From the IMG/VR virus record IMGVR_UViG_3300017917_002270, positions 1 through 23,682 of that record: 23,682 nt of DNA, one strand, 5' to 3'. The translations under genes were made by a program, and so were the position numbers. The stretch is from a virus. Positions 978 through 21,717 of this stretch are shown here, piece by piece. The notes under the pieces were generated by a model. It did not search any database. It was not told the origin of the DNA and was given only the letters and a program-made list of their open reading frames with translations. Numbering within the stretch: the stretch's first letter is position 1; every line of letters begins with the position of its first letter.

Positions 978-1183
978 TCTTTGTCAATTTGTATTGAGTT
1001 TCTAAATCTATTTAATAATACTTCTTGTGCCAAGCCAGTATCGCTATACAATCTAAAATGAAATGAAAATGTTTCACTGTCAAATTTAGTTGGAATTTTT
1101 GTAAATCCAGCCTGTTTTAAGACAAGTATATTATTATTAATTTCATCTTGTGTTAAGTTAATAGAAATGTTTAACGCAAACAT
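974..1183 (-). CDS. small hypothetical protein, 69 aa
   Basis: A 69-residue protein I do not recognise. It has a predicted short alpha-beta make-up: a helical stretch starting LTQDEINNNILVLKQAGF is followed by alternating strand-like residues. It has no cysteines, no membrane segment and no signal peptide. It is tightly embedded: its ATG overlaps the ssb stop by one base (TAATG), and its TGA overlaps the glycosyltransferase ATG (ATGA). Translational coupling at both ends supports it as a real gene. Confidence 0.6.
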   Translation of the reverse strand: MFALNISINLTQDEINNNILVLKQAGFTKIPTKFDSETFSFHFRLYSDTGLAQEVLLNRFRNSIQIDKE

Positions 1184-1602
1184 TAAAATGGAATATCCTC
1201 ATTATCAGAACTTGCGGGTGCTGCCTTCTTTCCATTCTTAGCTTTTGGCTTTGCTTCAGGTTCAGGTTCGGAATCTCCATCTGCCGGCGCATTATCAGAC
1301 TTAGAACCAAGCATCATAATATGCTCGGCTTTAATAAAGACCTTGCTGCGCTTTTCACCATCCTTTTCCCATGAATCTTGCACTAATTCACCAAGAACAG
1401 CAACCTGTTTGCCCTTAGTAATATATTCTTCGGCAATTTCGGCACCCTTGCCCCAAATTTCAACGTCAAAAAAGTTGGTTTTATCCTTTTTGTAACCATC
1501 TACTGCTAAACCAAACTTAGCAACTTTGGTTTCACCAACATCTTTAACTTCAGGGTCTCGTGTTAATCGTCCAACTAGTGTAACTGAATTATTCGCTCTC
1601 AT
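1183..1602 (-). CDS. ssb: single-stranded DNA-binding protein
   Basis: A 139-residue SSB of bacterial type. Residues 1 to about 100 form the OB-fold, opening with NSVTLVGRLTRDPEVK and including FFDVEIWGKGAE and KGKQVAVLGEL, which match core strands of the family. A flexible tail rich in Pro, Glu, Lys and Ala follows and ends in the acidic tip SDNEDIPF. In bacterial SSBs this DIPF-like tip recruits replication and repair partners; here it may contact the phage's own helicase, primase or nucleases, which is inference. The gene lies just downstream of the C-terminal polymerase half and one small gene, and its start overlaps that gene by 14 bases. Its base composition is visibly less AT-rich than neighbouring hypothetical genes. 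Confidence 0.95.
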   Translation of the reverse strand: MRANNSVTLVGRLTRDPEVKDVGETKVAKFGLAVDGYKKDKTNFFDVEIWGKGAEIAEEYITKGKQVAVLGELVQDSWEKDGEKRSKVFIKAEHIMMLGSKSDNAPADGDSEPEPEAKPKAKNGKKAAPASSDNEDIPF

Positions 1603-2122
1603 GTGTAAATCCTTGTAAAAATATTTGTTTAACTATTTGATAGCCTTCATTTACTTTAGATTGTTCGCTTAGACTATCTATTTCTGGCGAAAAACCATTC
1701 TCAATTCCATAACTAACAATTGTGATTAAATCTTGCTCTTTTTTAGAACATTTATTATCTCCCAATAACATAAAAATTTTTGATATAGGTTCATTATCAA
1801 CATTATCTATACTTTTTGATGTTTCATCATTAAAATTAATTAATTCTGGTGGATAATTTAAACGATTACATTCTAATATAATGTCTAATATAGCAAGCAT
1901 TTTTAAGCTGTATGATGGAGCTTTAATAATATCACTTTTACCATTAAGATTTTTGATAATCTTATTTTTCTTAAATTCATATGTGATATATTTTGGTTCA
2001 ATATTAGTCAACTTATTTTTTTGACCTGGTAATGTTAAGACCACCAATCCACTTGTTTTATTTAATTTAACACTATAATCAATTTTGGTTAAATTGTCTT
2101 TTATTTTGTTTAAATTTGCCAT
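1589..2122 (-). CDS. hypothetical protein between polymerase C-half and ssb, 177 aa
   Basis: A 177-residue, Lys/Asn/Ile-rich protein that I do not recognise. The first 70 residues look like a small beta-rich domain (SVKLNKTSGLVVLTLPGQ, YITYEFKKNKIIKNLNG). The rest is mainly helical, with an acidic linker around residues 98-112. It has no membrane segment or metal motif. Its ATG lies 13 bases inside the end of the polymerase C-terminal gene, and its stop lies inside the start of ssb. This position suggests co-expression with the replisome and perhaps an accessory role, but no function can be assigned. Confidence 0.6.
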   Translation of the reverse strand: MANLNKIKDNLTKIDYSVKLNKTSGLVVLTLPGQKNKLTNIEPKYITYEFKKNKIIKNLNGKSDIIKAPSYSLKMLAILDIILECNRLNYPPELINFNDETSKSIDNVDNEPISKIFMLLGDNKCSKKEQDLITIVSYGIENGFSPEIDSLSEQSKVNEGYQIVKQIFLQGFTHESE

Positions 2123-3714
2123 ACTTTTTCTACCAAAATGCTCTCACCCTTTTCTTTATTTTCACTACGTTTGCATCGTAGTAATACTGTATTACCGTCA
2201 GATAATATGTCGCGATATGTTTCGTATATATCTGCAAAAGCCACGATATTATCCATTCTTGTTGATTTATCTGATGCTGTAATAAATGCCATACATTTAC
2301 CAAAACTATTGCTAGTCTGTTTTTTAATAGTATACTCACGTACAGCCTCTAACAATACTGCAACAACCATATATTCCGAATCATAACCATTTTGAATTTG
2401 TTGCAGTGTACAATTAGCAACACTTACATCTCTATCATCCAATTTAGTCTTAGTGATTGGAACACCCAAGTAAAATTCCTCTTGAAACGAAATAAAATCG
2501 GCAGAGTCTTTCAGAGAAAATGGCGGATTGTCCAGTTCGTTCTTGATTTCTTGCAGTTTACTCAGTGTGTTTGATGCAGGTTTCCTATTGTTTATTTTAG
2601 GAGGATTGGCTAAATAAATTCCTATTAATTCCGATAAAGATGCTGGTTTTTGCGTTTCTAATATCTGTGCAAATGCTTTTAACTGGGTCGCGGTTAAATT
2701 ATTGAACCGATTATATTCGAACTGCATTTTTTGCCGGTCAACACCCATATAATCTAGGGCACCACTTAAAATCAAGGATTTCATAATTCCTGCTGAAATA
2801 TCTACAGACGTAAGAAATTCTAGCCAAGATAAATTCTTAATTGTCCCCTTTGTTGCTTCTATATTAGAAATTGTTGATATAATCTTGTCAATTGATGCGT
2901 CTCCTATTTCTCGAATAGAAGATAGACCAAAATAAATTCCATCTTCGTGATATTCAAAATCCTTATTTTTATTATAGAGACTTGGACCAAAAACTTCTAT
3001 ATTAAAAGATTTAGCGTCATTGATTAATTCATTGATAGCAGTAAATTTATCTGCTGAGTCTTTAGCATTACGCAACCAAGATACGAAAAATTCTTTCGTA
3101 TAATTTGCTTTCAAATAAGCTGTAATATAACATGTTTGAGCATAACTAACGCCGTGACTTAAATTGAATGAATATCTTTGAGATTTTTCCAAAATATCGA
3201 AAATTTTATCGGCTTCATCGCGGGTACATTTACCAATCTTTTCAGCACCATTAACAAATTTAGACCTAAGTGGTGCCATTAACTCTGGTTTCTTTTTAGC
3301 AGCAGCTTTACGGAAGTCATCTGCTTCTTGTAGATTAAAACCTGCTATTTCTCTACAAATAGACATAGCTTGTTCTTGATACACTAAAATTTGATAAGTA
3401 TCACGTAATAATGGTTCCAAACATGGGAACAATGGTTTAGTTGGTAATTCTCCATTTTTACGCATACAATATAGAGTTGCCATGTTTTTACCAGACTCTT
3501 CATCTTGAACCTCAAGAGTACCTGGTCTAACAATTGAGATTAAATCTGCTAGTTGTTTTAGCTTTTCAGGCTTCAGTTTTTTACTATATGTTCTTAATAA
3601 GGGTGACTCAATTTGAAAACAACCAATGGTTCTGCCAGAACCAATCAATTCATATGTAGCTTCATCGTCATACTGATATCCTGGAGCAGTAAGTTTTTTA
3701 AGTAAATCACTCAT
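2110..3714 (-). CDS. dnaE: DNA polymerase III alpha subunit, C-terminal half (fingers, HhH, OB)
   Basis: A 534-residue chain equivalent to the C-terminal half of a bacterial C-family replicase. It opens with a Met in the short linker after the palm, then reads GRTIGCFQIESPLL and IVRPGTLE, counterparts of E. coli VFQLES and RPGPL. Fingers motifs follow: VYQEQAM (111-117), ADDFRKAAAKK (131-141) and YSFNLSHGVSYA (181-192). IYFGLSSIREIG (260-271) belongs to the helix-hairpin-helix region. An OB-fold occupies roughly 430-534. The palm and its catalytic aspartates are absent; they are on the separate chain at 6955-8841. No tau-binding domain and no clear clamp-binding pentapeptide were recognised. 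The ATG has an 8-base overlap with the upstream gene. It presumably works only when assembled with the other half. Confidence 0.93.
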   Translation of the reverse strand: MSDLLKKLTAPGYQYDDEATYELIGSGRTIGCFQIESPLLRTYSKKLKPEKLKQLADLISIVRPGTLEVQDEESGKNMATLYCMRKNGELPTKPLFPCLEPLLRDTYQILVYQEQAMSICREIAGFNLQEADDFRKAAAKKKPELMAPLRSKFVNGAEKIGKCTRDEADKIFDILEKSQRYSFNLSHGVSYAQTCYITAYLKANYTKEFFVSWLRNAKDSADKFTAINELINDAKSFNIEVFGPSLYNKNKDFEYHEDGIYFGLSSIREIGDASIDKIISTISNIEATKGTIKNLSWLEFLTSVDISAGIMKSLILSGALDYMGVDRQKMQFEYNRFNNLTATQLKAFAQILETQKPASLSELIGIYLANPPKINNRKPASNTLSKLQEIKNELDNPPFSLKDSADFISFQEEFYLGVPITKTKLDDRDVSVANCTLQQIQNGYDSEYMVVAVLLEAVREYTIKKQTSNSFGKCMAFITASDKSTRMDNIVAFADIYETYRDILSDGNTVLLRCKRSENKEKGESILVEKVWQI

Positions 3715-4015
3715 ATTGAATATATTCTGTATTTAGAACAAAAGAATTATTTTTCCACATATTTTGTTGTTCTATTATTGTTTTATTTTGTTCTTTAAGT
3801 TTTTGTTCTTTAAGTTGTTTAATTAAAACTAATCTAGCTCTTTTATCTTGACAATCGTTACAAATAAATACATAATTATGTTCTATATATAAATATGATT
3901 GCATAGAACTGAGTGCAACTTCAAAAGTTTTACGACATTCTTCACATGGAATATCAACATTTTGATTTTTATTAACTATATAGTTTCTATTTAAATAATT
4001 AATCTGTGTTACCAT
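3707..4015 (-). CDS. small zinc-ribbon-like protein, 102 aa
   Basis: A hypothetical protein with two cysteine pairs, CEEC near residue 25 and CNDC about 25 residues later, a typical spacing for one zinc ribbon. A long charged helix rich in Lys, Gln and Glu follows and could form a coiled coil. I chose the ATG at 4013-4015 (MVTQINYL) because GAGAG lies nine bases upstream; the frame is also open to a TTG at 4033. The gene sits between the proofreading-type exonuclease and the polymerase C-half, overlapping both. It could be a nucleic-acid or protein adaptor, but the function is unknown. Confidence 0.6.
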   Translation of the reverse strand: MVTQINYLNRNYIVNKNQNVDIPCEECRKTFEVALSSMQSYLYIEHNYVFICNDCQDKRARLVLIKQLKEQKLKEQNKTIIEQQNMWKNNSFVLNTEYIQYE

Positions 4016-4616
4016 TAGAAAATGCTCTCTCAAACTTCACTTTATTCATTTTATATACTTTAAGCAATCTAATTGCAATTTTAGCACAATCACGTGCATC
4101 AATTAATGCATTATGTGCTCCATCTCTTGACAATCCAACTAAATCGCGTAAATCATTTAGACTTGTTACACTGTAATCTTTAGTAAAGAATGTCCAGCGA
4201 AACATATCGTCCATTAAATCCAAACGATTAACTTTATGGAATAGAAGGTCTGTGTTTAAACCCTTTGCAGTTAAAAATGGCGTATCGAACTTATTAATAT
4301 TATATCCAGCAGGAATAGGAGAATCCCAACCTGTTTTACCTCGTCTCCATCGTTTAATATATTCACTAAACAACGAGATAGCATTATCAATTTTTGGACC
4401 TTTCATAACTTCTTGAAGCGAAAGCCCAGTATAACTCCAAGTTTTATCTTCTATGATATCTGGATTTTCGGGTTTTATCACTGTGTAAAATTCACTATTT
4501 GGAATAATAGATAATCTAACAGGGTCAACAACAACAGAACCAATTGATAAAATTTGGTCAGTTGTTTCTAGGCCAGAAGTTTCAATATCGAAGAAAAGAA
4601 AATAGTTGTTATTCAT
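3999..4616 (-). CDS. DEDDh 3'-5' exonuclease (DnaQ/epsilon-like)
   Basis: A 205-residue exonuclease of the DEDDh class, which removes 3' nucleotides with two metal ions. Exo I is FFDIETSGLE with D10 and E12. Exo II is YNINKFDTPFL with D111. Exo III is DGAHNALIDARDCAK, with the catalytic His168 and Asp173. All five DEDDh residues are present, so it should be active. The most likely role is proofreading for the phage's split polymerase, because the gene lies between the two halves; repair or RNA trimming remain alternatives. No clamp-binding motif was recognised in the short C-terminus. I chose the ATG at 4614-4616, which overlaps the upstream TGA (ATGA), over an in-frame TTG at 4634. Confidence 0.88.
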   Translation of the reverse strand: MNNNYFLFFDIETSGLETTDQILSIGSVVVDPVRLSIIPNSEFYTVIKPENPDIIEDKTWSYTGLSLQEVMKGPKIDNAISLFSEYIKRWRRGKTGWDSPIPAGYNINKFDTPFLTAKGLNTDLLFHKVNRLDLMDDMFRWTFFTKDYSVTSLNDLRDLVGLSRDGAHNALIDARDCAKIAIRLLKVYKMNKVKFERAFSNGNTD

Positions 4617-4924
4617 CTGTAATAAGACCCGCAATCACAATGGTCTGGAGCATAATTCCATTCATCGTCTTCATTTAATCTCCAACACTCTATTTTATAG
4701 CACATAGAACAATGTCGTATTAATACATCTTCGTCAGAATATTTAATATCTTCTGGTATACTATCATACCATTTCACGCGCCTATCTTGAACATCGGACC
4801 TTCTTTTATTGATTAGTTTATCATGAATATTACGAACAATAGTTTCGGTTAATTTATATACTGGATTATTAAATATCCATTCATAATCTGTTCCATTTTT
4901 GACTGGATAACCATCTAGCTCCAT
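4613..4924 (-). CDS. hypothetical cysteine-containing protein, 103 aa
   Basis: An unrecognised 103-residue protein, strongly charged and rich in Asp, Arg, Trp and Tyr. Its C-terminus carries a likely metal site: HCSMC, a further Cys about five residues on, and HCDC just before the end. This arrangement of His and Cys could hold one or two zinc ions. There is no membrane segment. It starts two bases after the UDG-like gene and ends in an ATGA overlap with the exonuclease, so it is coupled to the replicase gene set. Confidence 0.6.
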   Translation of the reverse strand: MELDGYPVKNGTDYEWIFNNPVYKLTETIVRNIHDKLINKRRSDVQDRRVKWYDSIPEDIKYSDEDVLIRHCSMCYKIECWRLNEDDEWNYAPDHCDCGSYYR

Positions 4925-4926
4925 TT

Positions 4927-5445
4927 TTATAATTCCTGTAATAATTGTGTTTTAAATGTATTTACTTCAAAAGTACCGCCATTCATAATATATGAAGGAT
5001 GATAACATAATTTATACTTTATAAAATGTGTTATTGAAAATGGTAAGATAACTTCGGAATTTTGAATTAATTTATTTTCGGTAGTTTTTAGTGTACTTTT
5101 TAATCTTGGAAAGATAGCCTTTTGCCCCAATAGAAATATAGTTGAGGGTTGAATTTTTTCAATTTCTTTCAAAAGATGAGATTCACAAATTTGACTATAT
5201 TGTTTCCATGCTTTAGTTGTAGTATCTACTGGACATTTTAATAAACTAGTTGAATATATTAAATCTTTATCAATATTACATTCTTGTAAAATTTTATCTA
5301 CAAATTTTTGTGTTATTTGATTAATAGGTACGTGATAAATAAACATCCACTTAGCAGATTTTTTACCAATTCCTGGTATTGGACTTACGCATCTCGAACT
5401 AAGTGGACATAATGTACAATTCAAAACATCTTCTTTTATTGACAT
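4927..5445 (-). CDS. uracil-DNA glycosylase superfamily protein, family 4-like, degenerate active site
   Basis: A 172-residue protein with the layout of a family 4 (Fe-S) uracil-DNA glycosylase. The four expected cluster cysteines are visible: C10 and C13 (NCTLCPL), C71 (SLLKCP) and C87 (SQICESHLL). The central IQPSTIFLLGQKA and late CYHPSYI (H149) also align with the family. However, the catalytic motif 1, normally like GEGPG followed by a PFVG loop, is replaced by FIYHVPINQ. The enzyme may therefore be inactive, have altered specificity, or serve as a DNA-binding or structural partner of the polymerase. UDG-like domains are also found attached to phage SPO1-type polymerases, which fits a replisome role. 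The start is an ATG in a TAATG overlap with the upstream gene. Confidence 0.7.
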   Translation of the reverse strand: MSIKEDVLNCTLCPLSSRCVSPIPGIGKKSAKWMFIYHVPINQITQKFVDKILQECNIDKDLIYSTSLLKCPVDTTTKAWKQYSQICESHLLKEIEKIQPSTIFLLGQKAIFPRLKSTLKTTENKLIQNSEVILPFSITHFIKYKLCYHPSYIMNGGTFEVNTFKTQLLQEL

Positions 5446-5717
5446 TATAACATTTTAACTTGAATATAGTTATCTTTATCTGGGGATGATATTGCCATGC
5501 CTAATTTTGTATATCCTTTACGTTTAGTTTTTACAACTTTACCAGTTTTGGTACTTATATATATTGTATCACCAACAGATATTTTCTTATTCATAGTTTG
5601 AGTTATAATTATATTTCCACTGTGATATATTGGTAATAATAATCTAACATCTAAAGGATATGGATTTTCGGTAAGAGACAAACCCATCCAAAAGACAGTG
5701 TCTAATAATAATTTCAT
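5445..5717 (-). CDS. small beta-rich hypothetical protein, 90 aa
   Basis: A 90-residue protein with a beta-strand and turn pattern (SVGDTIYISTKTGKVVKTKR, LGMAISSPDKDNYIQVKML). The order GD-[hydrophobic]-Gly turn-LGxAx-hydrophobic end is reminiscent of small phage capsid-associated DUF2190-like proteins. The match is by eye and weak. There are no cysteines and no convincing signal peptide. It is fused by an ATGA overlap to the IMPDH-family gene and by TAATG to the UDG-like gene. Confidence 0.55.
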   Translation of the reverse strand: MKLLLDTVFWMGLSLTENPYPLDVRLLLPIYHSGNIIITQTMNKKISVGDTIYISTKTGKVVKTKRKGYTKLGMAISSPDKDNYIQVKML

Positions 5718-6724
5718 ATTTCAATCACACGTACATTTTTCCTAAAATCTGGTAAATATTTAGCGTTCATATAAGACATAGATGACTGTAAACCACCCTT
5801 AAATCTTTTAATTACATTCTCAACATGTCCGCTGTAATTAACTAGTGTTTCTCTTCCTTCAATATATGTTGGTTTATTTCCACTATTTTCTTGTTGAACA
5901 GAGAATGATGCAGCACCACGCAACACTTTCTTTAGAACTCCATCAACCTTTAACATAGATGATGGTGATTCTGCACATCCAGCTAAAATACCACCAACCA
6001 TTACGGCATCAGCACCAAGAGCTAATGCCTTACACATATCTGCTGGTATTTTAATTCCACCATCTGCAATTATCTCTGCTGGTCGATAACATCTTTGAAT
6101 TTTTTCTCTTCCATTGACTATTTCTTCAATTAATGATGCCATTGGATAATATATACCAGTTTCAGTTTTAGTTTCACAAACACTTCCACCAGCAATACCA
6201 ACTCGTACTGCACTAACACCTAAATCATTTAGATAATGATATCCTTCAATGGATGCTACATTACCAACGATAATACCTGTTCTTCCATAAGAATCAATAT
6301 TGCCTAAATTAGATATATATTCTATAGTTTTTTCAATTTGTTTATTGGCACCATTAGCAGTATCGACACAAAATAGACGACAACCTACATTAAATAATTC
6401 TTCTATTCTATTGAATTCTTTTAAACCTACGGCACATCCTATTCTAGATTTTTCTATAGAACTTAAATCATTTTTTTCTGATAAAAGAAATTCTATTTTT
6501 TGTTCTTCTATACTTTGAAATCGATGAATAAGACCCATACAACCCAATTTAGCTAATTGGACCGCCATTTGTCCATTACAAACATCTGGCATTGGAGCCG
6601 ATATAATTGGTACATCCAATGTTATTGTACTAATTTTTGTGGATGTATTTACGCATGAACGACTTATAACATCAGATACTACTCTGGGCACTAATGAAAT
6701 GTGTTGATAATCTAATTTTTTCAC
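5714..6724 (-). CDS. IMP dehydrogenase / GMP reductase family enzyme
   Basis: A 336-residue TIM-barrel enzyme of the family that interconverts IMP with XMP (IMPDH) or GMP (GMP reductase) through a covalent cysteine intermediate. Visible landmarks are DTANG (121-125), the catalytic loop AGGSVCETKTETG with Cys183, the phosphate-binding IADGGIK (219-225) and MVGGILAG (242-249), the RG at 269-270, and the YIEG and GGLQSSMSYMNA segments near the C-terminus. There is no CBS pair, and the overall length is close to GMP reductase. TGIYYP after the catalytic loop also leans toward GMP reductase, but I would not decide between them. It could bias guanine nucleotide supply for phage DNA or a modification pathway. 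The start is a GTG in a GTGA overlap with the upstream gene. Confidence 0.88.
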   Translation of the reverse strand: MKKLDYQHISLVPRVVSDVISRSCVNTSTKISTITLDVPIISAPMPDVCNGQMAVQLAKLGCMGLIHRFQSIEEQKIEFLLSEKNDLSSIEKSRIGCAVGLKEFNRIEELFNVGCRLFCVDTANGANKQIEKTIEYISNLGNIDSYGRTGIIVGNVASIEGYHYLNDLGVSAVRVGIAGGSVCETKTETGIYYPMASLIEEIVNGREKIQRCYRPAEIIADGGIKIPADMCKALALGADAVMVGGILAGCAESPSSMLKVDGVLKKVLRGAASFSVQQENSGNKPTYIEGRETLVNYSGHVENVIKRFKGGLQSSMSYMNAKYLPDFRKNVRVIEI

Positions 6725-6954
6725 TTTAAAATTTCCTTAAACTCTGAAACAAATGATTCTAATTCTGGGTCATAATTAGAAGTATTCCAATGTGTATATT
6801 TTGGATTATCTTCTATTGCTTTCTTGAGACAGGATAAATGTAAATTTGTATCCCACTCCCACGAAAATAGCCAATCTATTTCTTCATCATCAGTCATATA
6901 ACAAAACCAACATCCACCCTTAGCTGGGGTACTTTTTCTTTCATTTTTCTTCAT
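6721..6954 (-). CDS. small putative zinc-binding protein, 77 aa
   Basis: A 77-residue hypothetical protein with CWFC near residue 15 and LHLSC about 24 residues later, so a CxxC plus HxxC site for a single zinc is likely. The rest is acidic and aromatic (four Trp). The ATG follows immediately after the TAA of the polymerase N-half (TAAATG), and its TGA overlaps the GTG of the IMPDH-family gene. No function can be assigned; it may be a small adaptor or host-takeover protein. Confidence 0.6.
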   Translation of the reverse strand: MKKNERKSTPAKGGCWFCYMTDDEEIDWLFSWEWDTNLHLSCLKKAIEDNPKYTHWNTSNYDPELESFVSEFKEILK

Positions 6955-8841
6955 TTATTTCTCTATTAATGAAATTGCCGTTGAAACTTTATTTAATGCG
7001 GATAATCCTAAAATATCAAATTTAACAATACCATATGGCTCTAAATCTTCCAATTCTAAACCACAACTTAGGTGTGAACTACGCTTATCGTATACCATTG
7101 GACAATATTCAAATAAGTCTTGACTGGAAATAACTAATCCAGAAGCGTGTTTACCAATAGAACGAGCAGTTCCTTCCAATCGCATAGCTTGAGCAAATAT
7201 ATGTCCATATTTGCCCGTAATCTTTCCGTCCTGTAATTCTACCCATTCCTTTAGTTCTTTTGCGTGATTCTGAAGTGCCCATAGTATTATAGAGGGTTGC
7301 TCTCCAGATTCTTTCATGCTCTGAAGTTCATCTGCGATTTTAGCTTCGTCAGGAATCCAGTCGGTAATTCTGTTAACTTCATCGTATGTTGCGGTATCAT
7401 AGATACGGAAAACGTCTTTAACAACTCCACGACCCATCATACGACCAATTGTACAGATATTTGCCACACAATTTTCGCCGTATCTGGAACGTATATAATC
7501 TATGACTTCATCTCGTCGAGTCGCCTCGAAATCCGTATCAATATCAGGATATTGAATATGTCCAGGTGAATTACGTCCAGCATTATAAAATCGCTCAAAA
7601 ATCAAATTATTTTCAATTGGATTAACTTGCGTAATATCTAACAAATAGGATACTAGACAACCTGCAGCTGAACCGCGTCCAGGTCCAGTTAAAATACCCT
7701 TATTATTTGCCGCCTTAACATAATCATTTACGATAAGGAAATAGTCTGACAAATTTGCGTCTTCAATAACTTTGAGTTCGCCGTTAATTCGGTCCACATA
7801 TTTTTGTTGTTCTTCTTTACTAATCACAGATGCTATTTTATTACGCCATCCATCTCGACACTTTTGTCTCAATTCTTGCACAGAATTATTAGATATAGAA
7901 GGTAATTTTGGTTTATTTAAAATGCTATAATTTTCACATCGGCTAGCAATTTCGAGCGAACTATCAAGTTCTTCCTTAGTATGCCATTTTTGCATTTCTT
8001 CCTGTGAAGGAATATAATACTGACTTGATTTAAAAAATCCATCTAAACCAAATTCTTCACCTGAATTTAATTGACTCTGAACCTTCTTTAGAGTTGTTTT
8101 TAAACTAATACATAGAAGTGCTCGTTGGTCTCTTGCATCCTCTTTTTTAGCATAATGTGAATCTGCCGTTGCTACACAAGGAATACCCATCTTTTTTGAT
8201 AAGTATCTAAGTCCTTGTGCCAAAACAACTTGTGCTGGCATATTAACTTGGTCAAATAATTGAACTTCCAGAAAGAAGTTATCCTTAAAAATTGAACGAT
8301 ATTTATCTGCCAAATTAGATGCTGCTTGTACCCAATCTGGTCGGATAAAACCTTTTACATCTTCAACAGTTTCTGCACCGTAAGCATTTAAATCGGAAAA
8401 AAATATGTTGGCCATTTGCGAACCTGGATGACCAGAGAAGCAGAGCAAACCTTCTGAATATTTCGCAAGCATATCAAAATCAATGCGCGGCTTATAATAG
8501 AATTTAGTATTTGCTGCATTATTAAGTCGCACTAAGTTGGTCCATCCGACTGGATTTGTTGCCAACACAACCAAGTGGGCTAGTTTGCGGTTTTGTGGGT
8601 CTTTTACTTCAGCATTATCGCAAATGTAAAATTCGTTAGCAAAAATAGGTTTTAATTCTCTTTTTTTACATTCCTTTTCTAGTTTAACTGTTGATAGTAA
8701 ATTACCATGTTCTGATAATGTGCAGGTTGTATAACCTAATTCTTTACACCTTTTCACCATATTACTAGCTGAACTAGCACCATCAAGCAACGACCCATCA
8801 GAACTATGGGCGTGATGTGGTAACCAAATTGGACTATTCAT
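6955..8841 (-). CDS. dnaE: DNA polymerase III alpha subunit, N-terminal half (PHP, palm, thumb)
   Basis: A 628-residue chain covering the PHP and palm/thumb domains of a C-family replicase. PHP-type metal ligands are visible: H10 and H12, H45 (LSEHGN), E70, H89 (LAHL), H138 (SGHPG), E192, and D227 with H229 (ADSHY). The palm has GPGRGSAAG (386-394), PDIDTDF with D433 and D435, and the third catalytic aspartate D609 in IVKFDILGL. These match E. coli D401, D403 and D555. The chain ends 19 residues after D609, with no intein-like sequence. The fingers and C-terminal domains are encoded separately at 2110-3714. The ATG overlaps the upstream TGA (ATGA). The intact PHP ligands suggest a metal-loaded, possibly exonucleolytic PHP domain. 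Confidence 0.95.
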   Translation of the reverse strand: MNSPIWLPHHAHSSDGSLLDGASSASNMVKRCKELGYTTCTLSEHGNLLSTVKLEKECKKRELKPIFANEFYICDNAEVKDPQNRKLAHLVVLATNPVGWTNLVRLNNAANTKFYYKPRIDFDMLAKYSEGLLCFSGHPGSQMANIFFSDLNAYGAETVEDVKGFIRPDWVQAASNLADKYRSIFKDNFFLEVQLFDQVNMPAQVVLAQGLRYLSKKMGIPCVATADSHYAKKEDARDQRALLCISLKTTLKKVQSQLNSGEEFGLDGFFKSSQYYIPSQEEMQKWHTKEELDSSLEIASRCENYSILNKPKLPSISNNSVQELRQKCRDGWRNKIASVISKEEQQKYVDRINGELKVIEDANLSDYFLIVNDYVKAANNKGILTGPGRGSAAGCLVSYLLDITQVNPIENNLIFERFYNAGRNSPGHIQYPDIDTDFEATRRDEVIDYIRSRYGENCVANICTIGRMMGRGVVKDVFRIYDTATYDEVNRITDWIPDEAKIADELQSMKESGEQPSIILWALQNHAKELKEWVELQDGKITGKYGHIFAQAMRLEGTARSIGKHASGLVISSQDLFEYCPMVYDKRSSHLSCGLELEDLEPYGIVKFDILGLSALNKVSTAISLIEK

Positions 8842-14741: not shown

Positions 14742-15767
14742 TTATTCCTTATTAACATCTCTTTGTTTTAAACCTTCTGAACCACCACCATAACCATAAT
14801 CAGATAAATCAAACCCAGGTACTGTATTATCAATAATAGCTTGTTTTAAACCCTTAGTTTTAACTTCATTAGCAACATGTTCACATAATGAATTTTGTCC
14901 AAGTACTTTTGATGCAAAACACAATGATTTACACTTCCAATGTTTTCTATTACGAGATAATAAGGCTGGAGTTTGAGTCTGTTTAATTTCCTGAAATCTA
15001 TTCTTAATCATTTCTTCTATGACTGGTAGATTTGAACGGTCAAATGGCATAGAAAATACACCACCTGCACGAACATAAAATATACTCATCATAAACTCTT
15101 TGTCTGGATAAAGATGAGCTAATGCATAATAGTAGATACAGAGTTGTGGGTCTTTTAAAAATTCATTAAATCCCTTTTCATTATCATAATCTTTATTCCA
15201 ATCATTTCGACGAGATGCAGTCTTATAATCTAATGCTTCCAGATAATCTCCGTGGTCTAATATAAGGTCAATATTACCTTTTAATCGCAAATATCCCTCA
15301 TATTTATTTGGGCCTAAATCAAATTTATATTTTGCCCAATCTTTTTTAATTTCAATATCAAATGATTGTTCAACACCAAAAACCTTATTATTTAATGGAG
15401 AATAAAAACCATTTTTATAATTTAAACAGTCTTGAAACCAATTCCAGTATTCTTCTCTATCTTCGTCAGTGTATGAATGTTCAGATTTATTAGCGTAGAA
15501 AGAAAAAGAGTCGGCAAAAATTTTATGAAAGTCAATCGGCTTAGTTAAGTCTAATGGTTCCATTTCTGGATATTCCATTGACGTTAAATTCTGTTGTTTA
15601 CCAAGCTGATAAAGGGCAACACCCTCCATTGCTTTATGTATAATGTTTCCAGCTTCAGCCTTTTTATTTGCCGGGCCTTTATAGCCCATTCCGTATTCTA
15701 GCACGAAAAGGTGCTGACACCAATCCCAACGATTATATGATGAACTACGCAAAAATGTTACTTGCAT
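14742..15767 (-). CDS. RecB/Cas4-like PD-(D/E)XK nuclease with probable Fe-S cluster
   Basis: A 341-residue nuclease of the PD-(D/E)XK superfamily, RecB/AddB/Cas4-like branch. N-terminal SSSYNRWDWC gives C17. H44 is in the expected GxxxH position (AGNIIHKAM). D167 lies in LKGNIDLIL, D180 and K182 in ALDYKTA, and the Q-motif is DPQLCIYYYAL (Q208). Three more cysteines, C279, C283 and C295, lie near the C-terminus. With C17 they could hold a 4Fe-4S cluster as in AddB and Cas4 proteins. It probably processes DNA ends for recombination or replication alongside RecA and DnaB. The last 40 residues, rich in Gly and Lys, are an unconserved-looking tail. Its start lies 10 bases inside the dNMP kinase gene. 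Confidence 0.85.
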   Translation of the reverse strand: MQVTFLRSSSYNRWDWCQHLFVLEYGMGYKGPANKKAEAGNIIHKAMEGVALYQLGKQQNLTSMEYPEMEPLDLTKPIDFHKIFADSFSFYANKSEHSYTDEDREEYWNWFQDCLNYKNGFYSPLNNKVFGVEQSFDIEIKKDWAKYKFDLGPNKYEGYLRLKGNIDLILDHGDYLEALDYKTASRRNDWNKDYDNEKGFNEFLKDPQLCIYYYALAHLYPDKEFMMSIFYVRAGGVFSMPFDRSNLPVIEEMIKNRFQEIKQTQTPALLSRNRKHWKCKSLCFASKVLGQNSLCEHVANEVKTKGLKQAIIDNTVPGFDLSDYGYGGGSEGLKQRDVNKE

Positions 15768-16513
15768 TCTATTTCAAAATCAATCCATCCCCAACCAACT
15801 AAAATATCAAAAATCGCCTTATTTTGCTGTTCAATAGTCATGTCAGAATTATCGATAACTTCGTCGAAATCAGTAAAATTATCTAGGGCAATTTCTGCCG
15901 CCGCATCAGAATTAAATTTATTACGGGTTAAACGCACAACTTTACCACCAGCAGCCCTAATTGCTGCAATTTCTTCTGGAAAACGTACATCAGTAATAAT
16001 ACTGAATTCTGAATTCTGTTCGGCAATATCCCGCATAAGAGCATCGCACCAACATGTGGGAATTAAGGTCCGCATAATATCGGTTCCAACAATTTCTAGG
16101 ACTTCTCTCGCGGTCAAGAATCCCGAAATGTCCTTCTTTTTTCTTTTCTTTATTATTTCCAATGGTATATTAGCCCAGGGCACTTTAGTTAAAGTATTTT
16201 TGTCATTATCAGAACCATAACACTGTTCATGTGTTAAGCCCAAAACTTTTATACAGAATTTTTTTAATGGGTCAGCAAATGAAAATTGTCTCACGTATGG
16301 ATAAACGAAATCCTTTAGAAAGGGCGTTTCTCGTGTAACATCTAATTTTCTATCTTCTACTTGGCCATCATAAGCTAATGGAACAATTAAATCTCCATTA
16401 CTATCTACATAGCTATATTCAATTATATCATACTGTTGCATCCATAAACCAGTAAGCCAATTACCAATTGTATTTTTACCAGCGGATTTTTTACCAGAAA
16501 TACCTAAAATCAT
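15758..16513 (-). CDS. deoxynucleoside monophosphate kinase, phage type
   Basis: A 251-residue P-loop kinase resembling phage dNMP kinases (T4 gene 1 type), which phosphorylate dNMPs to dNDPs. The P-loop is GKKSAGKNT (7-15). FSFADPLKKF (77-86) gives the acidic substrate region. TAREVLEIVGTDIMR (134-148) and IITDVRFPEE (172-181) match the family. Such enzymes raise dNTP supply, and some act on modified nucleotides, so the pairing with the IMPDH-family gene may point to altered nucleotide pools; that is inference. It is joined to the primase gene by ATGA. Base composition is less AT-rich than the adjacent nuclease gene, especially over 15.8-16.1 kb. Confidence 0.85.
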   Translation of the reverse strand: MILGISGKKSAGKNTIGNWLTGLWMQQYDIIEYSYVDSNGDLIVPLAYDGQVEDRKLDVTRETPFLKDFVYPYVRQFSFADPLKKFCIKVLGLTHEQCYGSDNDKNTLTKVPWANIPLEIIKKRKKKDISGFLTAREVLEIVGTDIMRTLIPTCWCDALMRDIAEQNSEFSIITDVRFPEEIAAIRAAGGKVVRLTRNKFNSDAAAEIALDNFTDFDEVIDNSDMTIEQQNKAIFDILVGWGWIDFEIECK

Positions 16514-17571
16514 AATTTATCAATTAACCTTTTTATTGAATCAATTTCTTTACTAGAAGCTTCGCCTATATCTTTACTTTTATATACGGGACAGATTATT
16601 TTTCCTAAATGTGAACAGCTATTTGCAATTTGTAATGTAGCATTATCTCCAGCAGCATCATTATCCATTAAACATATAATATTTTTGATGTTAAGTTGTT
16701 CAAGTAGAATGACTTGCTGGTCTTTAATCGCGGAACCATAGATGGCTAATGCACCATTAACTCCATAGTCAGATAAACGTATGGCGTCAAGTGGACCTTC
16801 CGTTAAAATTACATTACCAGTATTATTAATATAATCTCTAGCAAACCAAAGATTAAATAAACTATTGCTAGTATGCCAATTTTTGGAATTTATCCACTTG
16901 GAATAATGTTTAAAATTATCACAAGAACCATAATGATAATAATTGCATTTTGGGCATTTAACAAATAATGAACGACCTAAACAACCATTAACAATATCTT
17001 TATCATTATCATATACCGGAACAACTATTCTATTATACATACGTTTACCTTTATTAAGGCAAACTCCAATATCATACATATCTAAAATTTCTTCAGAAAA
17101 TCCACGTTTAATCAGTGGTTCGGCTGGACGTTTTAAACTTTTACGTATGTATCGTTTAGTAACTTCTTTACATTGTTCAGTTTGAATTTGATGTTTAGTA
17201 ATTCCTTGTAATTGTTTATCGATATCTATTATAGCAGAACAATTTAAAAACGAAAGACAAAATGTGATTGTTTCGGCAAATGTCTCTGTTTTATTATTTT
17301 CTGGCCATCCATACCGTGCCCTAGATAAAATTCCTCTTACTAGACCTAACATTGAGGGCATAAAAGTGTCGTGACAATTTCGTGTAAAACATCGCCAAAA
17401 ACCATCTTTAATTGACAGGGCATTAGGATTATCACCGCCATGACAGGGGCAGGCCATTGTGACTTTTTTGCCATAATCATATTCAATTTTAAATAAATCT
17501 AATAATTCGTTGACGCGATACCACAATAATTGCGAAATTTTATACAATTCATCTTGATTATACTTCGTCAT
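16510..17571 (-). CDS. DnaG-type DNA primase
   Basis: A 353-residue primase that would lay down RNA primers at the fork. The N-terminal CHC2-type zinc site is visible as CPCHGGDNPNA (C41, H44), C61 and C66. The Toprim domain has VILTEGPLDAIRL (E258) and CLMDNDAAGD (D303, D305), which bind catalytic metal. Between them, at 206-217, is an added cysteine cluster (CPKCNYYHYGSC) not usual in cellular DnaG. There is no C-terminal helicase-binding domain of recognisable form, so the chain is short relative to bacterial DnaG (about 600). It overlaps the helicase gene by 14 bases, which fits joint production of a primase-helicase pair. Confidence 0.9.
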   Translation of the reverse strand: MTKYNQDELYKISQLLWYRVNELLDLFKIEYDYGKKVTMACPCHGGDNPNALSIKDGFWRCFTRNCHDTFMPSMLGLVRGILSRARYGWPENNKTETFAETITFCLSFLNCSAIIDIDKQLQGITKHQIQTEQCKEVTKRYIRKSLKRPAEPLIKRGFSEEILDMYDIGVCLNKGKRMYNRIVVPVYDNDKDIVNGCLGRSLFVKCPKCNYYHYGSCDNFKHYSKWINSKNWHTSNSLFNLWFARDYINNTGNVILTEGPLDAIRLSDYGVNGALAIYGSAIKDQQVILLEQLNIKNIICLMDNDAAGDNATLQIANSCSHLGKIICPVYKSKDIGEASSKEIDSIKRLIDKL

Positions 17572-18970
17572 TATCTTCTAATTCAAACGCTTCGTCTGAA
17601 ACATTTTGTGAATTAAGACCTATTTCTATCAGTTTAGAATATTCACCCTGAAAATCAAAATTGATATAGCCATGTCCAGTACCTGGACCAAATCTAGTTA
17701 CTAGAGTTTTCATTTTTCTATTGCCATTTTGTTTACCATCTTGTGCTATTTCTTCAGGCTCTTTTTCTTTTAGAAGCGAAACTGATGTAGCATACTGTGA
17801 TAATCTATCTGAACTTGCGATAACAGCAATTGTTTCTTCCCTGATTCCATCGCGATTTGTTTGTCCAAATGATAAACATGGGAAATCATAACGTTTAGTA
17901 AAAGCATTTAGTGCCTGTAATTGAAAACCAAGTGCTTGATATTCAGCCATATTTTTTGATAATTCATTGGTGTCCATTAATTTAAAATAGTCGTAAATAA
18001 CAACACAATCATTTGTAGTACCATCAGCTCTAATACCAACTTCTTTAAGAATCCATCGTTTAATAATAGATAGAATCTCATCAAATGAACAACCTGCAAC
18101 AGTTCGATAATAATATGGTATATCGGCAACTTTTTTAGCAACTGCTAATACTTGTTTTTGTTGTTTAGCATCTAATTTACCGGTCTCAATTAATTTAGAG
18201 TCGATATTGCACATATTAGCATAAATACGCGCTAAATGTTCTTTATCTGTCATTTCTGTATCAACATTGAAGACAGGTATTTTTAATACATCTGCAATAT
18301 GTATGGCTACATTATCAACAAATGTAGTTTTACCAGCTTTTGCTCTAGCTACAACTAGATTTGTATTACCCCTTCTTAATCCACCACCAATTGATGCATC
18401 AAATAATGGATAACCAGTACTAATTCCAATGGTTTCACGTGGATTATCTATAATATGTTGAATCCACTCAACACCATCAGTTCCAATTTTTTTGGTTTGT
18501 TGTGTATCTCTATCCAAAAAATTAGATAGGTCAAGAATTTTACCTTCTGGAATAGCAAAAATTTCTGCTATAGATTCAGTACCAACAATTTTTTCCAATT
18601 CTTTAGAAGCTATTACCATCTGTTGTTTTAATTTTCTGGTAATAGATAATTTAGCAACTTTAATTGCTTCGTTACGAATATTATTTAACTCGATAGATTC
18701 ATCTTTTAAACTTTTAATATAAGCAAGAACATCTTTTGATAAATAATTTTTGTAACCTAAATCAGTAGCAGTTGAAATAATACTAGGAATATCCACATTA
18801 TTATTGTATTTATCATAATATTCTTTACAGCATGAAAATACAATTTTATGTGTTTCATTTTCAAAATCTTCTGGTCTAATAACATCGTCTACTTCAATAA
18901 AACCATCTTTACCATGATTTATTAAACCAATTAATATTGACTTTTCAGCCTGTAAATTACTGATACTCAT
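17558..18970 (-). CDS. DnaB-type replicative helicase
   Basis: A 470-residue hexameric helicase. The N-terminal DnaB-like domain covers roughly 1-110 (NLQAEKSILIGLI). The RecA-like motor begins at about residue 180 with ISTGYPLFDASIGGGL. Walker A is ARAKAGKTT (208-216), the catalytic glutamate is in VDTEM (E239), Walker B is VVIYDYFKL (D327), and the sensor-like motif is SFGQTNRDG (Q370). The TRFGPGTG motif late in the chain carries the likely arginine finger and contacts with nucleotide. It unwinds DNA ahead of the split polymerase with the primase encoded next. An acidic tail ends the protein. Its ATG overlaps the upstream TGA (ATGA). Confidence 0.93.
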   Translation of the reverse strand: MSISNLQAEKSILIGLINHGKDGFIEVDDVIRPEDFENETHKIVFSCCKEYYDKYNNNVDIPSIISTATDLGYKNYLSKDVLAYIKSLKDESIELNNIRNEAIKVAKLSITRKLKQQMVIASKELEKIVGTESIAEIFAIPEGKILDLSNFLDRDTQQTKKIGTDGVEWIQHIIDNPRETIGISTGYPLFDASIGGGLRRGNTNLVVARAKAGKTTFVDNVAIHIADVLKIPVFNVDTEMTDKEHLARIYANMCNIDSKLIETGKLDAKQQKQVLAVAKKVADIPYYYRTVAGCSFDEILSIIKRWILKEVGIRADGTTNDCVVIYDYFKLMDTNELSKNMAEYQALGFQLQALNAFTKRYDFPCLSFGQTNRDGIREETIAVIASSDRLSQYATSVSLLKEKEPEEIAQDGKQNGNRKMKTLVTRFGPGTGHGYINFDFQGEYSKLIEIGLNSQNVSDEAFELEDNDEV

Positions 18971-19509
18971 TTTGCGCCATTACATTTATTACAACGGTAG
19001 GAAGTGCCTTCCAACATAGTTGCTGCTAAACCACTAGAAATCATTTCTGTTTTTCCACAAACATAACACTGTTTTTCAACAGTAATTGCTGCAGGTCTAA
19101 TTCTTGGAACTGGTTTTTTACCTTTCCAATTTTTCTTATCTATTTTTCTATCGTCAGCACCAACATCACGATAATCAATAAATTGAATTTTTCTATTTGG
19201 GTCAATAATACTAGACCTACCTTTTACAGTAGGTAAAATATTAGTTGTACTATTTAATTGTTGTGTTTGTTTTTTTGTCCTAACAGTCTTTTTGGATTTA
19301 GTTTGTGTCTTAGCTTGCGTTTTTTTACCGCTAGGAATCCACTCTTTAGGAATACGTTTTATAGTCAAAACAACTTTTTTTGTCGTAAAAGTTTTGAACT
19401 TATATTTTCCAGAAAATAATATTTCAGTTGGTACTAGCAAATCACCACAATACCAGTTACCATCTTTTAATACGACTGTTATATTAGTCGCGGTTTTGAT
19501 TTTTTTCAT
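18967..19509 (-). CDS. C-terminal zinc-ribbon protein with basic linker, 180 aa
   Basis: Residues 1-55 look beta-rich (ITVVLKDGNWYCGDLLVP, KVVLTIKRIP). A Lys/Gln/Thr-rich basic linker (about 60-85) and a proline-containing stretch follow, and then a C-terminal ribbon, CYVCGK and CNKC spaced by about 23 residues. The basic linker plus ribbon suggests nucleic-acid binding. It is coupled to the helicase by ATGA, so a helicase-loading or fork-associated role is possible, but no known loader signature is seen. Its start lies 26 bases inside the upstream gene. Confidence 0.6.
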   Translation of the reverse strand: MKKIKTATNITVVLKDGNWYCGDLLVPTEILFSGKYKFKTFTTKKVVLTIKRIPKEWIPSGKKTQAKTQTKSKKTVRTKKQTQQLNSTTNILPTVKGRSSIIDPNRKIQFIDYRDVGADDRKIDKKNWKGKKPVPRIRPAAITVEKQCYVCGKTEMISSGLAATMLEGTSYRCNKCNGAK

Positions 19510-19990
19510 AAGCTAATCCATTAATATATTTAGCACTTTCGGCAACTTTATCAGATAAATCACGAATTTCGTTATATCGTGAATATGCCTGAGTTCTTAA
19601 TTTATGTAATTTTAAAGTAAAAGAATTTTCTGCTATAGCCAGCATTTTCTTTTCTTCTAAACTTTTGTATGTACCAGTACCACCTAGACTATCAATGTTT
19701 TTAGAAATTTTCATGGCGATTTGGTCATCAGCCCATTTTGCCTTTGAATAATGTCTATTTTCTTCTTTTTTAAGAAAGATGGCGTACATTGCTAATGAAC
19801 ATGCGTAATATCGACACTCTTCAGAAGTTAATAATTTAATTGTACTAACTGAAAGTGACATTAACGTATCAATATCTTCCGGTGGTTTTAATCTAGCTAA
19901 ACCAATGGATTTATCATATTCATCCAAAGCTTTATCTAGACCAGACATATAATCTTCTGCTGTTACAACTTGTTGAGTTTCTTCTTCCAT
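19484..19990 (-). CDS. helical protein of unknown function between RecA and helicase genes, 168 aa
   Basis: A 168-residue, almost wholly helical protein with charged residues spread throughout (SVSTIKLLTSEECRYYACSL, AKWADDQIAMKISKNI). It has no membrane segment, no zinc site and no enzyme motif. It sits between a nuclease gene and the zinc-ribbon/helicase pair, close to recA. In phages this position often holds recombination mediators or loading factors, so that is a reasonable guess, but the sequence shows no diagnostic motif. It overlaps both neighbours. Confidence 0.55.
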   Translation of the reverse strand: MEEETQQVVTAEDYMSGLDKALDEYDKSIGLARLKPPEDIDTLMSLSVSTIKLLTSEECRYYACSLAMYAIFLKKEENRHYSKAKWADDQIAMKISKNIDSLGGTGTYKSLEEKKMLAIAENSFTLKLHKLRTQAYSRYNEIRDLSDKVAESAKYINGLAYEKNQNRD

Positions 19991-20343
19991 ATAGTTATAT
20001 CTTCATTTTCAAAAAATTCTAAAACAAGAAAACCATTTTGTTCTAACAAATCTCGCTTTAATTTATCGCGAGATAAACTGCGTAAATAATCAATTTTATT
20101 TCCAAAGAATGAAACATACTGTGTATGTTGCCTACCTTGACATTCAATAGCAATTTTTAATGAAGGTAAAATGAAGTCAACATATAACTTATGTTTGGGA
20201 ATTTTAACTTCTTCCCATACAGTTTCATATGGAAATAGTTCTTTTAATAGTTGTTTTGTTTTATTGTGAAGCGAACTGTGTTTTCTGGTCTTATTATTTT
20301 TATGTAGTATCTTATATTCTTTATTATCTACAACAAATTTCAT
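19963..20343 (-). CDS. small PD-(D/E)XK endonuclease-like protein, 126 aa
   Basis: A 126-residue protein with the core of a restriction-type nuclease: a helical start with an acidic residue pair (WEEVKIP, E44 or E45), then LYVDFILPSLKIAIECQGRQ with D56, E67 and Q69. This D-x10-E-x-Q layout is found in Vsr/DUF559-like small nucleases. The C-terminal part (RDLLEQNGFLVLEFFENED) also follows that fold, in which a strand ends the core. The role could be repair, recombination or a homing function. It is joined to recA by ATGA and overlaps the next gene by 28 bases. Confidence 0.75.
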   Translation of the reverse strand: MKFVVDNKEYKILHKNNKTRKHSSLHNKTKQLLKELFPYETVWEEVKIPKHKLYVDFILPSLKIAIECQGRQHTQYVSFFGNKIDYLRSLSRDKLKRDLLEQNGFLVLEFFENEDITIWKKKLNKL

Positions 20344-21326
20344 TGACCAACTAACTCGCGTAATTTAGTTTGTAATTCGTTCTTTAACTCTGAACTTTCC
20401 TTAATTCCCGCTGTAAATTTAGCTAATCCCTGATACTTTTTCTCTCCATAGGTATACCAGGGCGTTTTAACACTGGCCAAACCCAGTTCAATAGCTAAAT
20501 TAGCAAGCTCTGCTTCTTCATCAATACCGTATCCAAATCTAAAATAGGATTGTATAGACGTTCCTTTAACTGCACCTGGTAGGGCACCAGTTTCTAATTT
20601 CCAGGACATTATTTGTCCTACGATATCGTCGCCCTCCTTCCATTCTTCAACTTTATCGCCACGTAGTTTAACGTCTGTCTGATAATTACCTGCGTTAGAG
20701 CCTTTTTCTTTAGTTGGGGCACCATATCCAGTTGGATTTGCGGCAATATGCCGAATAACGATAACTGTCCAATTATTAAAGCAGATAAGGTCTTTATTTC
20801 TGCGGACAAATTTTGCCATTAATTTTGCTGCATCGGCGCGTTGCATATCAGTAATATCACCTTCCATTTCAGCGTTAGTACATAAATATGATTCTGAATC
20901 GATAATTAGACAAGAATTATGTCCATTTTTCAATAAATTTTCATATTCTGCAATATGACCCTCTGCAGTTAAAATCAAAGCTTCTTGTGCCAACTCATTT
21001 TTTTCATTAAATTCAGCACCACGAGAAGTTACAACTTTAAATAATTCTGGTTTTAATCCAGAGGTTGATATTAAGTCGCGTCGTTTTAGACGAGCCTCAA
21101 CATTGCCGTAATAAACCATTTTGCCCATTTCCTGGCATTTTGCTGCTATTCTAAGAGCTAAAGCCGTTTTACCAAATTTTGGTGGACCATAAATAGTATT
21201 CCATGTACCAGATACAATACCACCACCCAATAAAATATCAAGTGCGGGAGATATGGAAATAACTTCCGGCTCCATATCCCAGAAAAATTGGCCGTCAACA
21301 ATATTACTTCTTTTTTCCTTCGTCAT
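20340..21326 (-). CDS. recA: RecA-type recombinase
   Basis: A 328-residue strand-exchange ATPase closer to bacterial RecA than to T4 UvsX. Walker A is GPPKFGKT (47-54), the catalytic glutamate lies in NVEARL (E77), Walker B is CLIIDS (D143), and the L2 region has GSNAGNYQTD (from 209). The C-terminal subdomain (LGLASVKTPWYTYGEKKYQG) parallels E. coli RecA around KAGAWYSYKGEK. It forms filaments on single-stranded DNA and promotes strand exchange, probably for recombination-dependent replication and repair. I chose the ATG at 21324-21326; the frame also extends to a TTG at 21332. Compared with E. coli RecA (353 residues) it has a shorter N-terminal helix and no acidic tail. Confidence 0.93.
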   Translation of the reverse strand: MTKEKRSNIVDGQFFWDMEPEVISISPALDILLGGGIVSGTWNTIYGPPKFGKTALALRIAAKCQEMGKMVYYGNVEARLKRRDLISTSGLKPELFKVVTSRGAEFNEKNELAQEALILTAEGHIAEYENLLKNGHNSCLIIDSESYLCTNAEMEGDITDMQRADAAKLMAKFVRRNKDLICFNNWTVIVIRHIAANPTGYGAPTKEKGSNAGNYQTDVKLRGDKVEEWKEGDDIVGQIMSWKLETGALPGAVKGTSIQSYFRFGYGIDEEAELANLAIELGLASVKTPWYTYGEKKYQGLAKFTAGIKESSELKNELQTKLRELVGQ

Positions 21327-21717
21327 AATCAAAAATGATACCTAAAGATGTTTTTTTCTTTTGTTGTGTGGGAAGTACATCGGTTCGAGCAGCTTCTAAC
21401 ACAACCTCTTCTGTGTGTATATTATACTTATCGCAAGCTTCCATAAGTTGTGGTCCAAGTAATGTAGTTAACCACCATAGTTCTTTGGAATTAAGAGCTT
21501 TTAAAATAACATTAGGCGAATAGATTTTCAATAACCTATTCGCCAACATTACTTCTCGAATAAAGATTTTTTTCCATTTATCTGTATTCCAGAATTTATC
21601 TACCAAAACCTTTTTTTCTTTATTTGCTCGTTTTTCACATATTTTTTCTGCGATAATTTGTGGTGCTGACACTAATTGGTCAGTATACTTTGATTCATAG
21701 ATTTTAGGATAAGACAT
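21304..21717 (-). CDS. hypothetical helical protein upstream of recA, 137 aa
   Basis: A 137-residue basic, mainly helical protein, with a Lys-rich run (ICEKRANKEKKVLVDKFWNT) and a helical hydrophobic centre (NVILKALNSKELWWLTTLLG). There is no signal peptide, zinc site or recognised fold. It overlaps the following recA start by 23 bases and lies 46 bases inside the upstream gene. This makes it part of the recombination block, but its role is not known. Confidence 0.55.
   Translation of the reverse strand: MSYPKIYESKYTDQLVSAPQIIAEKICEKRANKEKKVLVDKFWNTDKWKKIFIREVMLANRLLKIYSPNVILKALNSKELWWLTTLLGPQLMEACDKYNIHTEEVVLEAARTDVLPTQQKKKTSLGIIFDYDEGKKK

What the first reader, a model, noticed from the sequence alone, without database searches (positions are those of the whole stretch)
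2110..8841. DNA polymerase III alpha split into two genes without an intein
The N-half (628 aa, ending 19 residues after the third palm aspartate) and the C-half (534 aa, starting in the linker before the fingers) total 1162 residues, about the length of E. coli alpha (1160). The break falls in a short linker, so both pieces look like complete folding units. Neither end shows intein sequence (no Cys-led N-intein, no HN-C junction), unlike the cyanobacterial split DnaE, whose break is at another place. Seven genes separate the halves. Activity therefore requires non-covalent assembly.
Basis: partly seen in the sequence, partly recalled or inferred. Interest (0 to 1): 0.75.

Follow-up and report, generated by a model that had tools for sequence, protein, structure and literature searches.

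The report
Two-gene phage DNA polymerase III alpha
A large group of uncultured bacterial viruses makes its main DNA-copying enzyme as two separate proteins that must come together at the joint between two domains, usually with the gene for a proofreading enzyme lying between them.

Summary
Confirmed and extended. The window, an uncultured-virus contig, encodes Pol III alpha (C family, DnaE-like) as two chains. N-half (628 aa, 6955-8841 minus) is PHP-palm-thumb with all catalytic Asp. C-half (534 aa, 2110-3714 minus) is fingers-HHH-OB. Seven genes lie between. It is not an assembly error: in 118 distinct environmental viral contigs holding both halves the gene breaks at the same palm/fingers junction, 118 of 118 with a DnaQ-type exonuclease gene between. 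79 of 80 bacterial DnaE loci sampled are one ORF; the other is cut by a contig end. Catalytic residues are invariant in 157 N-halves. No intein sits at this break, although two relatives carry recognisable split inteins elsewhere in the same polymerase. 16 long relatives (49-244 kb) hold no family A or B polymerase. AlphaFold folds each half alone confidently (pLDDT 92-93). Best reading: an obligate non-covalent two-chain replicase, probably with DnaQ as third subunit. Precedents exist: a minimal split Pol III in jumbo phages that also have Pol B (PMC7824862), phage G, and phage phiT1, which breaks at the same site. So: a new variant of a known kind. No biochemistry was done.

The parts
6955..8841 (-). 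DnaE-N: PHP + palm + thumb half of Pol III alpha, 628 aa, catalytic D433, D435, D609; all nine PHP metal-ligand positions filled (one Cys replaced by His)
2110..3714 (-). DnaE-C: fingers + HHH + OB half, 534 aa, starts at the equivalent of E. coli alpha ~575-582
3999..4634 (-). DnaQ-like DEDDh 3'-5' exonuclease; homologue lies between the two halves in 118/118 contigs of the main clade; catalytic D16, E18, D117, H174, D179
3707..4033 (-). 108 aa Cys-rich protein overlapping the start of DnaE-C by 8 nt (ATGAGTGA), suggesting translational coupling
4613..4924 (-). 103 aa Cys-rich protein, unknown, in the gap
4927..5445 (-). uracil-DNA glycosylase, family-4-like, in the gap (also in the gap of L029, L037, L040, L342)
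5445..5717 (-). 90 aa protein in the gap
5714..6724 (-). IMP dehydrogenase/GMP reductase-like protein in the gap
6721..6954 (-). 77 aa protein in the gap, directly after DnaE-N
1183..1602 (-). SSB, downstream end of the conserved replication operon
14742..21717 (-). rest of the conserved replication module: PD-(D/E)XK nuclease (Cas4/RecB-like), dNMP kinase, primase, DnaB, orf180, orf168, DUF559/Vsr-like, RecA, orf137

Best explanation
The two ORFs are the two chains of one C-family replicative DNA polymerase. Chain N supplies the PHP domain, the palm with all three catalytic aspartates, and the thumb. Chain C supplies the fingers, HHH and OB fold. The break lies at the palm-fingers joint, so each chain is a complete folding unit and the active site is rebuilt by non-covalent docking, with no splicing. 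The DnaQ-like DEDDh exonuclease encoded between the halves is most likely the proofreading subunit of the same complex. The assembly is the virus's main, probably only, replicase. Shown here: sequence, gene order, clade-wide conservation, absence of inteins at the break, absence of other polymerases in long relatives, predicted independent folding. Inferred: docking, activity, DnaQ membership.
For: Same break in every clade member examined, 118/118 with DnaQ between. D433, D435, D437, H565, D609 invariant in 157/157 N-halves. DnaQ catalytic residues 119/119. Both halves match Pol III alpha structures: N by Foldseek 4iqj/2hpi E ~1e-44, C 4iqj/7pu7 E ~1e-22; sequence profiles map N to Thermus alpha up to residue 638 and C from 641. 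AlphaFold pLDDT 92.6 and 92.0 for each alone. No Pol A or Pol B in 16 long relatives, one PF07733 place in 15 of 16. N, C and DnaQ distances correlate with each other more than with other replication genes (r 0.91-0.94; partial 0.27-0.44). The clade is monophyletic, 100/100 support.
Against: No complex was predicted (the tools take one chain) and nothing was assayed. Neighbouring genes correlate in evolution anyway. The deeper sister contigs L328 and L341 have the split without a recognisable DnaQ in the gap, so DnaQ is not needed for the split itself. The window is a fragment, so another polymerase elsewhere in its own genome is not excluded.
Confidence: 0.85

Rival explanations
1. The halves are joined covalently after all, by an unrecognised split intein, RNA trans-splicing or DNA rearrangement.
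For: Split inteins do occur in this clade in the same polymerase: L026/L103 inside fingers with a homing-endonuclease-like ORF between, L218 at GRG|SAAG in the palm; cyanobacterial DnaE is spliced this way.
Against: Only 19 residues follow D609 and a stop lies 6 codons before the C-half start; no N-half in the clade has a tail long enough for an N-intein apart from L218, whose intein sits elsewhere; no Rfam intron in the window.
Confidence: 0.04
2. The split polymerase is accessory (repair or translesion) or vestigial, and the virus relies on another replicase, as in group 2.2 jumbo phages where a minimal split Pol III accompanies Pol B.
For: Precedent in PMC7824862; the window is incomplete.
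Against: No family A or B polymerase in 16 relatives of 49-244 kb; invariant active site in 157 N-halves; location inside the core operon with DnaB, primase, SSB and RecA.
Confidence: 0.09
3. The two proteins act separately: N as a nuclease/nucleotidyltransferase, C as a DNA- or clamp-binding protein.
For: Different genes with several genes between in some genomes.
Against: Palm and fingers residues are both conserved and, from known Pol III alpha structures, are needed together; N and C occur together wherever the contig is long enough to tell, with few exceptions at contig ends.
Confidence: 0.02

Closest known systems
Bacterial Pol III alpha, DnaE1 type (E. coli, Thermus, M. tuberculosis)
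   Same: Domain order PHP-palm-thumb-fingers-HHH-OB, catalytic Asp triad, fold
   Different: One chain there, two here; no tau-binding C-terminal region here; ~30% identity
Cyanobacterial split-intein DnaE
   Same: alpha encoded by two separated genes
   Different: Break within fingers (Y|CFNKSH, from my own knowledge) and halves ligated by a split intein; here break at palm/fingers, no intein
Minimal split Pol III alpha of group 2.2 jumbo phages (PMC7824862)
   Same: Phage C-family polymerase encoded as two separate proteins thought to reassemble
   Different: That one is described as only core catalytic and template-binding parts, at distant genes, alongside a Pol B; here full PHP, HHH and OB domains, DnaQ in the gap, no Pol B seen. 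I did not align the two
Rossellomorea phage phiT1 (PV767480) and contig L265
   Same: Break at the same palm/fingers joint, one small gene between, no intein
   Different: No DnaQ in gap; in the best tree a separate lineage next to unsplit viral DnaE, though shared origin is not rejected (p-AU 0.21)
Other phage dnaE splits: Bacillus phage G and Jayan, Microbacterium phage DannyDe, Mycobacterium phage Send513
   Same: alpha in 2-3 genes
   Different: Other break points (PHP/palm, or just before the DxD motif); phage G with a homing endonuclease gene between
Fractured genes with split inteins (Dassa et al. 2009, as cited in PMC6892783)
   Same: Phage genes in pieces with genes between
   Different: Those carry intein halves and a homing endonuclease; L026/L103 of this clade is such a case but at another site

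Membership tests
C-family DNA polymerase, Pol III alpha (DnaE type) | Palm with Asp triad (E. coli D401, D403, D555) | tested here: met
   D433, D435, D609, invariant in 157/157
C-family DNA polymerase, Pol III alpha (DnaE type) | PHP, thumb, fingers, HHH and OB domains | tested here: met
   (spread over two chains)
C-family DNA polymerase, Pol III alpha (DnaE type) | Single chain | tested here: not met
   two ORFs, 118/118 contigs
C-family DNA polymerase, Pol III alpha (DnaE type) | Clamp-binding motif QxxLF after HHH | tested here: inconclusive
   no obvious motif by eye in 49 C-halves; no bacterial-type clamp in 16 long relatives
C-family DNA polymerase, Pol III alpha (DnaE type) | DNA polymerase activity | not testable with these tools
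   needs purified protein
Cyanobacterial split-intein DnaE | N-intein on N-half and C-intein on C-half | tested here: not met
Cyanobacterial split-intein DnaE | Break before CFNKSH in fingers | tested here: not met
   window carries RYSFNLSH intact inside the C-half
Fractured gene (split intein + homing endonuclease) | Homing endonuclease between the pieces | tested here: not met
   none recognised among the seven gap genes by Pfam, NCBIfam, PHROGs
Group 2.2 jumbo-phage minimal split Pol III | Only core catalytic and template-binding parts, no PHP or other Pol III domains | tested here: not met
   PHP, HHH and OB present; paper text
Group 2.2 jumbo-phage minimal split Pol III | Coexists with family B polymerase | tested here: not met
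   0 of 16 long relatives, none of them shown to be complete; not testable for the window's own genome
DnaQ / epsilon-type DEDDh exonuclease (gap gene) | DEDDh catalytic residues | tested here: met
   119/119

The most novel reading that the evidence does not exclude
The polymerase is a true three-subunit core (DnaE-N, DnaQ, DnaE-C) in which the exonuclease helps hold or gate the palm-fingers joint, so that synthesis is possible only when the proofreader is bound; the split is a regulatory design and not a tolerated accident.
Probability: 0.13. Interest if true: 0.88.

Novelty: new variant of a known kind. Interest (0 to 1): 0.66.

Why it matters
Replicative C-family polymerases are otherwise almost always one chain. 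Here a diverse viral lineage, some of jumbo size, seems to depend on a two-chain version with a break at the moving palm-fingers joint. It gives a natural permissive split site for engineering split Pol III, a test of whether fingers and palm can assemble in trans, and a marker (DnaE-N, DnaQ, DnaE-C order) for a large lineage with no cultured member found here. The split lies in a gap that acts as an insertion hotspot for DNA and nucleotide metabolism genes, which bears on how multi-subunit replicases form.

Tried and rejected
Close-relative scans with the single window proteins found nothing; alignments were needed. DnaB and RecA of the window have only weak matches (~25-30%) in cultured phages, so host and family stay unknown. 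Rfam: nothing, so no known intron. The first trees put phiT1 next to the split clade; with more unsplit viral relatives it moved to an unsplit group, but a shared origin is not rejected. I considered that the conserved Cys motif in many C-half N-termini (FxCGCxF...NLxC) docks on the N-half: the Cys/His columns that co-vary with it most lie in the C-half, with only one weak His column in the N-half, so it more likely stabilises the C-half start; the window lacks it. Several paper searches found no description of this clade.

Full report
What is there. The window is a complete IMG/VR record of 23,682 bases, linear, so probably a fragment of a virus genome. Apart from short overlapping frames the ORFs are on the minus strand. 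The N-half, 6955-8841, 628 aa, has PHP and the Pol III alpha catalytic domain (PF07733 from profile position 2 to 260 of 260). The C-half, 2110-3714, 534 aa, has the fingers domain (PF17657) and HHH_6. Against the bacterial DnaE family model the N-half covers 7-576 and the C-half 587-1060 of 1146. So nothing is missing at the break, and what is missing is the far C-terminal (tau-binding) region; the total length equal to E. coli alpha is a coincidence. The third catalytic Asp is residue 609, 19 residues from the end. Seven ORFs lie between the halves.

Not an artefact. A scan of viral contigs with an alignment headed by the N-half gave 80 contigs at 40-52% identity. In all of them the N-half is a separate ORF that ends at the same point (a few are cut by the contig end), and where the contig reaches far enough the C-half is a separate ORF downstream. 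A second scan with the C-half gave 80 loci, none with N and C in one ORF. Removing duplicates leaves 118 contigs with both halves; all have the halves on one strand and a DnaQ homologue between them, with a median gap of 864 nt and a range of 603-5586. By contrast, of 80 bacterial loci found the same way 79 are one ORF and one is cut by the contig end. A third scan headed by phage phiT1 gave mostly unsplit viral polymerases, 70 of 79 new loci, so the method does find unsplit ones.

Functional constraint. D433, D435, D437, H565 and D609 are the same in 157 of 157 N-halves of the clade. The nine PHP metal-ligand positions are kept in most, with His in place of the usual Cys, but are degenerate in 39. 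The DnaQ DEDDh residues (D16, E18, D117, H174, D179) are the same in 119 of 119. AlphaFold with the clade alignments gives mean pLDDT 92.6 for the N-half, whose last helix ends at its C-terminus, and 92.0 for the C-half. Foldseek matches both to Pol III alpha structures. Sixteen long relatives (49-244 kb) have no family A or B polymerase, and one PF07733 place each except one with two. They have no bacterial-type sliding clamp either, and no classical clamp-binding motif is evident in the C-halves; how processivity is reached is open. Seven of the 16 have a terminase match at E <= 0.001, four over the family cut-off, consistent with tailed phages.

No intein. The N-half has 19 residues after D609 and a stop lies six codons before the C-half start. 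Tails are equally short across the clade. Inteins would have been seen: L026/L103 have the C-half broken again inside the fingers, with an N-intein, a homing-endonuclease-like ORF and a C-intein, and L218 has a split intein at GRG|SAAG in the palm.

Origin. The split polymerases form one clade with full support. L328 and L341 branch just outside the rest, break at the same place, and carry other genes in the gap: by my reading of the sequences a dUTPase and a thymidine kinase in L328, an RNase HII in L341, and a small zinc-ribbon protein in both. So the split is probably older than the DnaQ-in-gap arrangement, and the gap looks like an insertion hotspot; the window itself has added a UDG, a GMP reductase/IMPDH-like gene and small genes there. 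Phage phiT1 and contig L265 break at the same joint. The best tree places them with unsplit viral polymerases, which would mean that the same joint was split twice, but a single origin is not rejected (p-AU 0.21).

How it probably works. Palm and thumb on one chain and fingers on the other reassemble without a covalent bond. In the window the C-half start overlaps the preceding gene by eight bases and the genes are closely packed, which suggests coordinated translation. Evolutionary distances of N, C and DnaQ follow each other more closely than those of the other replication genes; this fits a three-subunit core, but neighbouring genes would also tend to do so.

What is known. Two bacterial surveys (PMC3919608, PMC12926913) mention no alpha of this kind; the first names cyanobacterial intein splits and frameshifted sequences only, as far as a term search of their text shows. 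PMC7824862 describes a minimal split Pol III in group 2.2 jumbo phages that also have Pol B. That is the nearest published precedent found; it differs in domain content and in the presence of Pol B. I did not compare sequences directly, so an ancient link is not excluded. Other annotated phages show dnaE in pieces with other break points. I found no description of this clade, but the library holds only part of the literature.

Verdict. Biochemical proof is missing.

Noticed in passing
L026:10783-13775 (same in L103): DnaE-C broken again inside the fingers by a split intein (RYSFNK|CLSPDSV... and ...GIAVSN|SHSSAY) with a homing-endonuclease-like ORF between, three residues from the cyanobacterial DnaE split-intein site.
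   Followed up: yes
L218:2745-5084: Split intein at GRG|SAAG in the palm of DnaE-N, with no endonuclease gene between.
   Followed up: yes
C-half N-termini of 52 of 64 clade members: Motif FxCGCxF plus a third Cys (NL[DE]C.KTW) and a co-occurring His in fingers; absent together in the window and near relatives: possible Zn site at the split end.
   Followed up: partly
39 clade members, e.g. L210, L224, L228: PHP metal site degenerate, most also with a shortened PHP region (~530 aa N-half), while DnaQ stays intact: loss of one of two possible proofreading sites.
   Followed up: partly
between DnaE-N and DnaQ in many loci, e.g. L064: Conserved ~58 aa small protein (VGxxFxxNGxEYxK...SCC), SH3-like by eye.
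   Followed up: no
contig of L255 (G006), 53291-54163 and 199351-200223: Two DnaE-N places in one 206 kb contig: real duplication or redundant assembly.
   Followed up: no
L200:3148-4930: DnaE-N interrupted by an apparent frameshift near residue 423-463.
   Followed up: no
L015 / JN638751 239245-248715: Bacillus phage G alpha in three pieces: gp329, gp331 after homing endonuclease gp330, and fingers at 248287.
   Followed up: partly
window 4927-5445 and 5714-6724: Family-4-like uracil-DNA glycosylase and GMP reductase/IMPDH-like gene in a phage replication operon.
   Followed up: partly
16 long relatives: No bacterial-type sliding clamp and no evident clamp-binding motif in DnaE-C: processivity factor unknown.
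   Followed up: partly
L014, Mycobacterium phage Send513 gp72: Annotated as sliding clamp, but it matches the DnaE PHP part (31% over 256 aa); likely misannotation.
   Followed up: no
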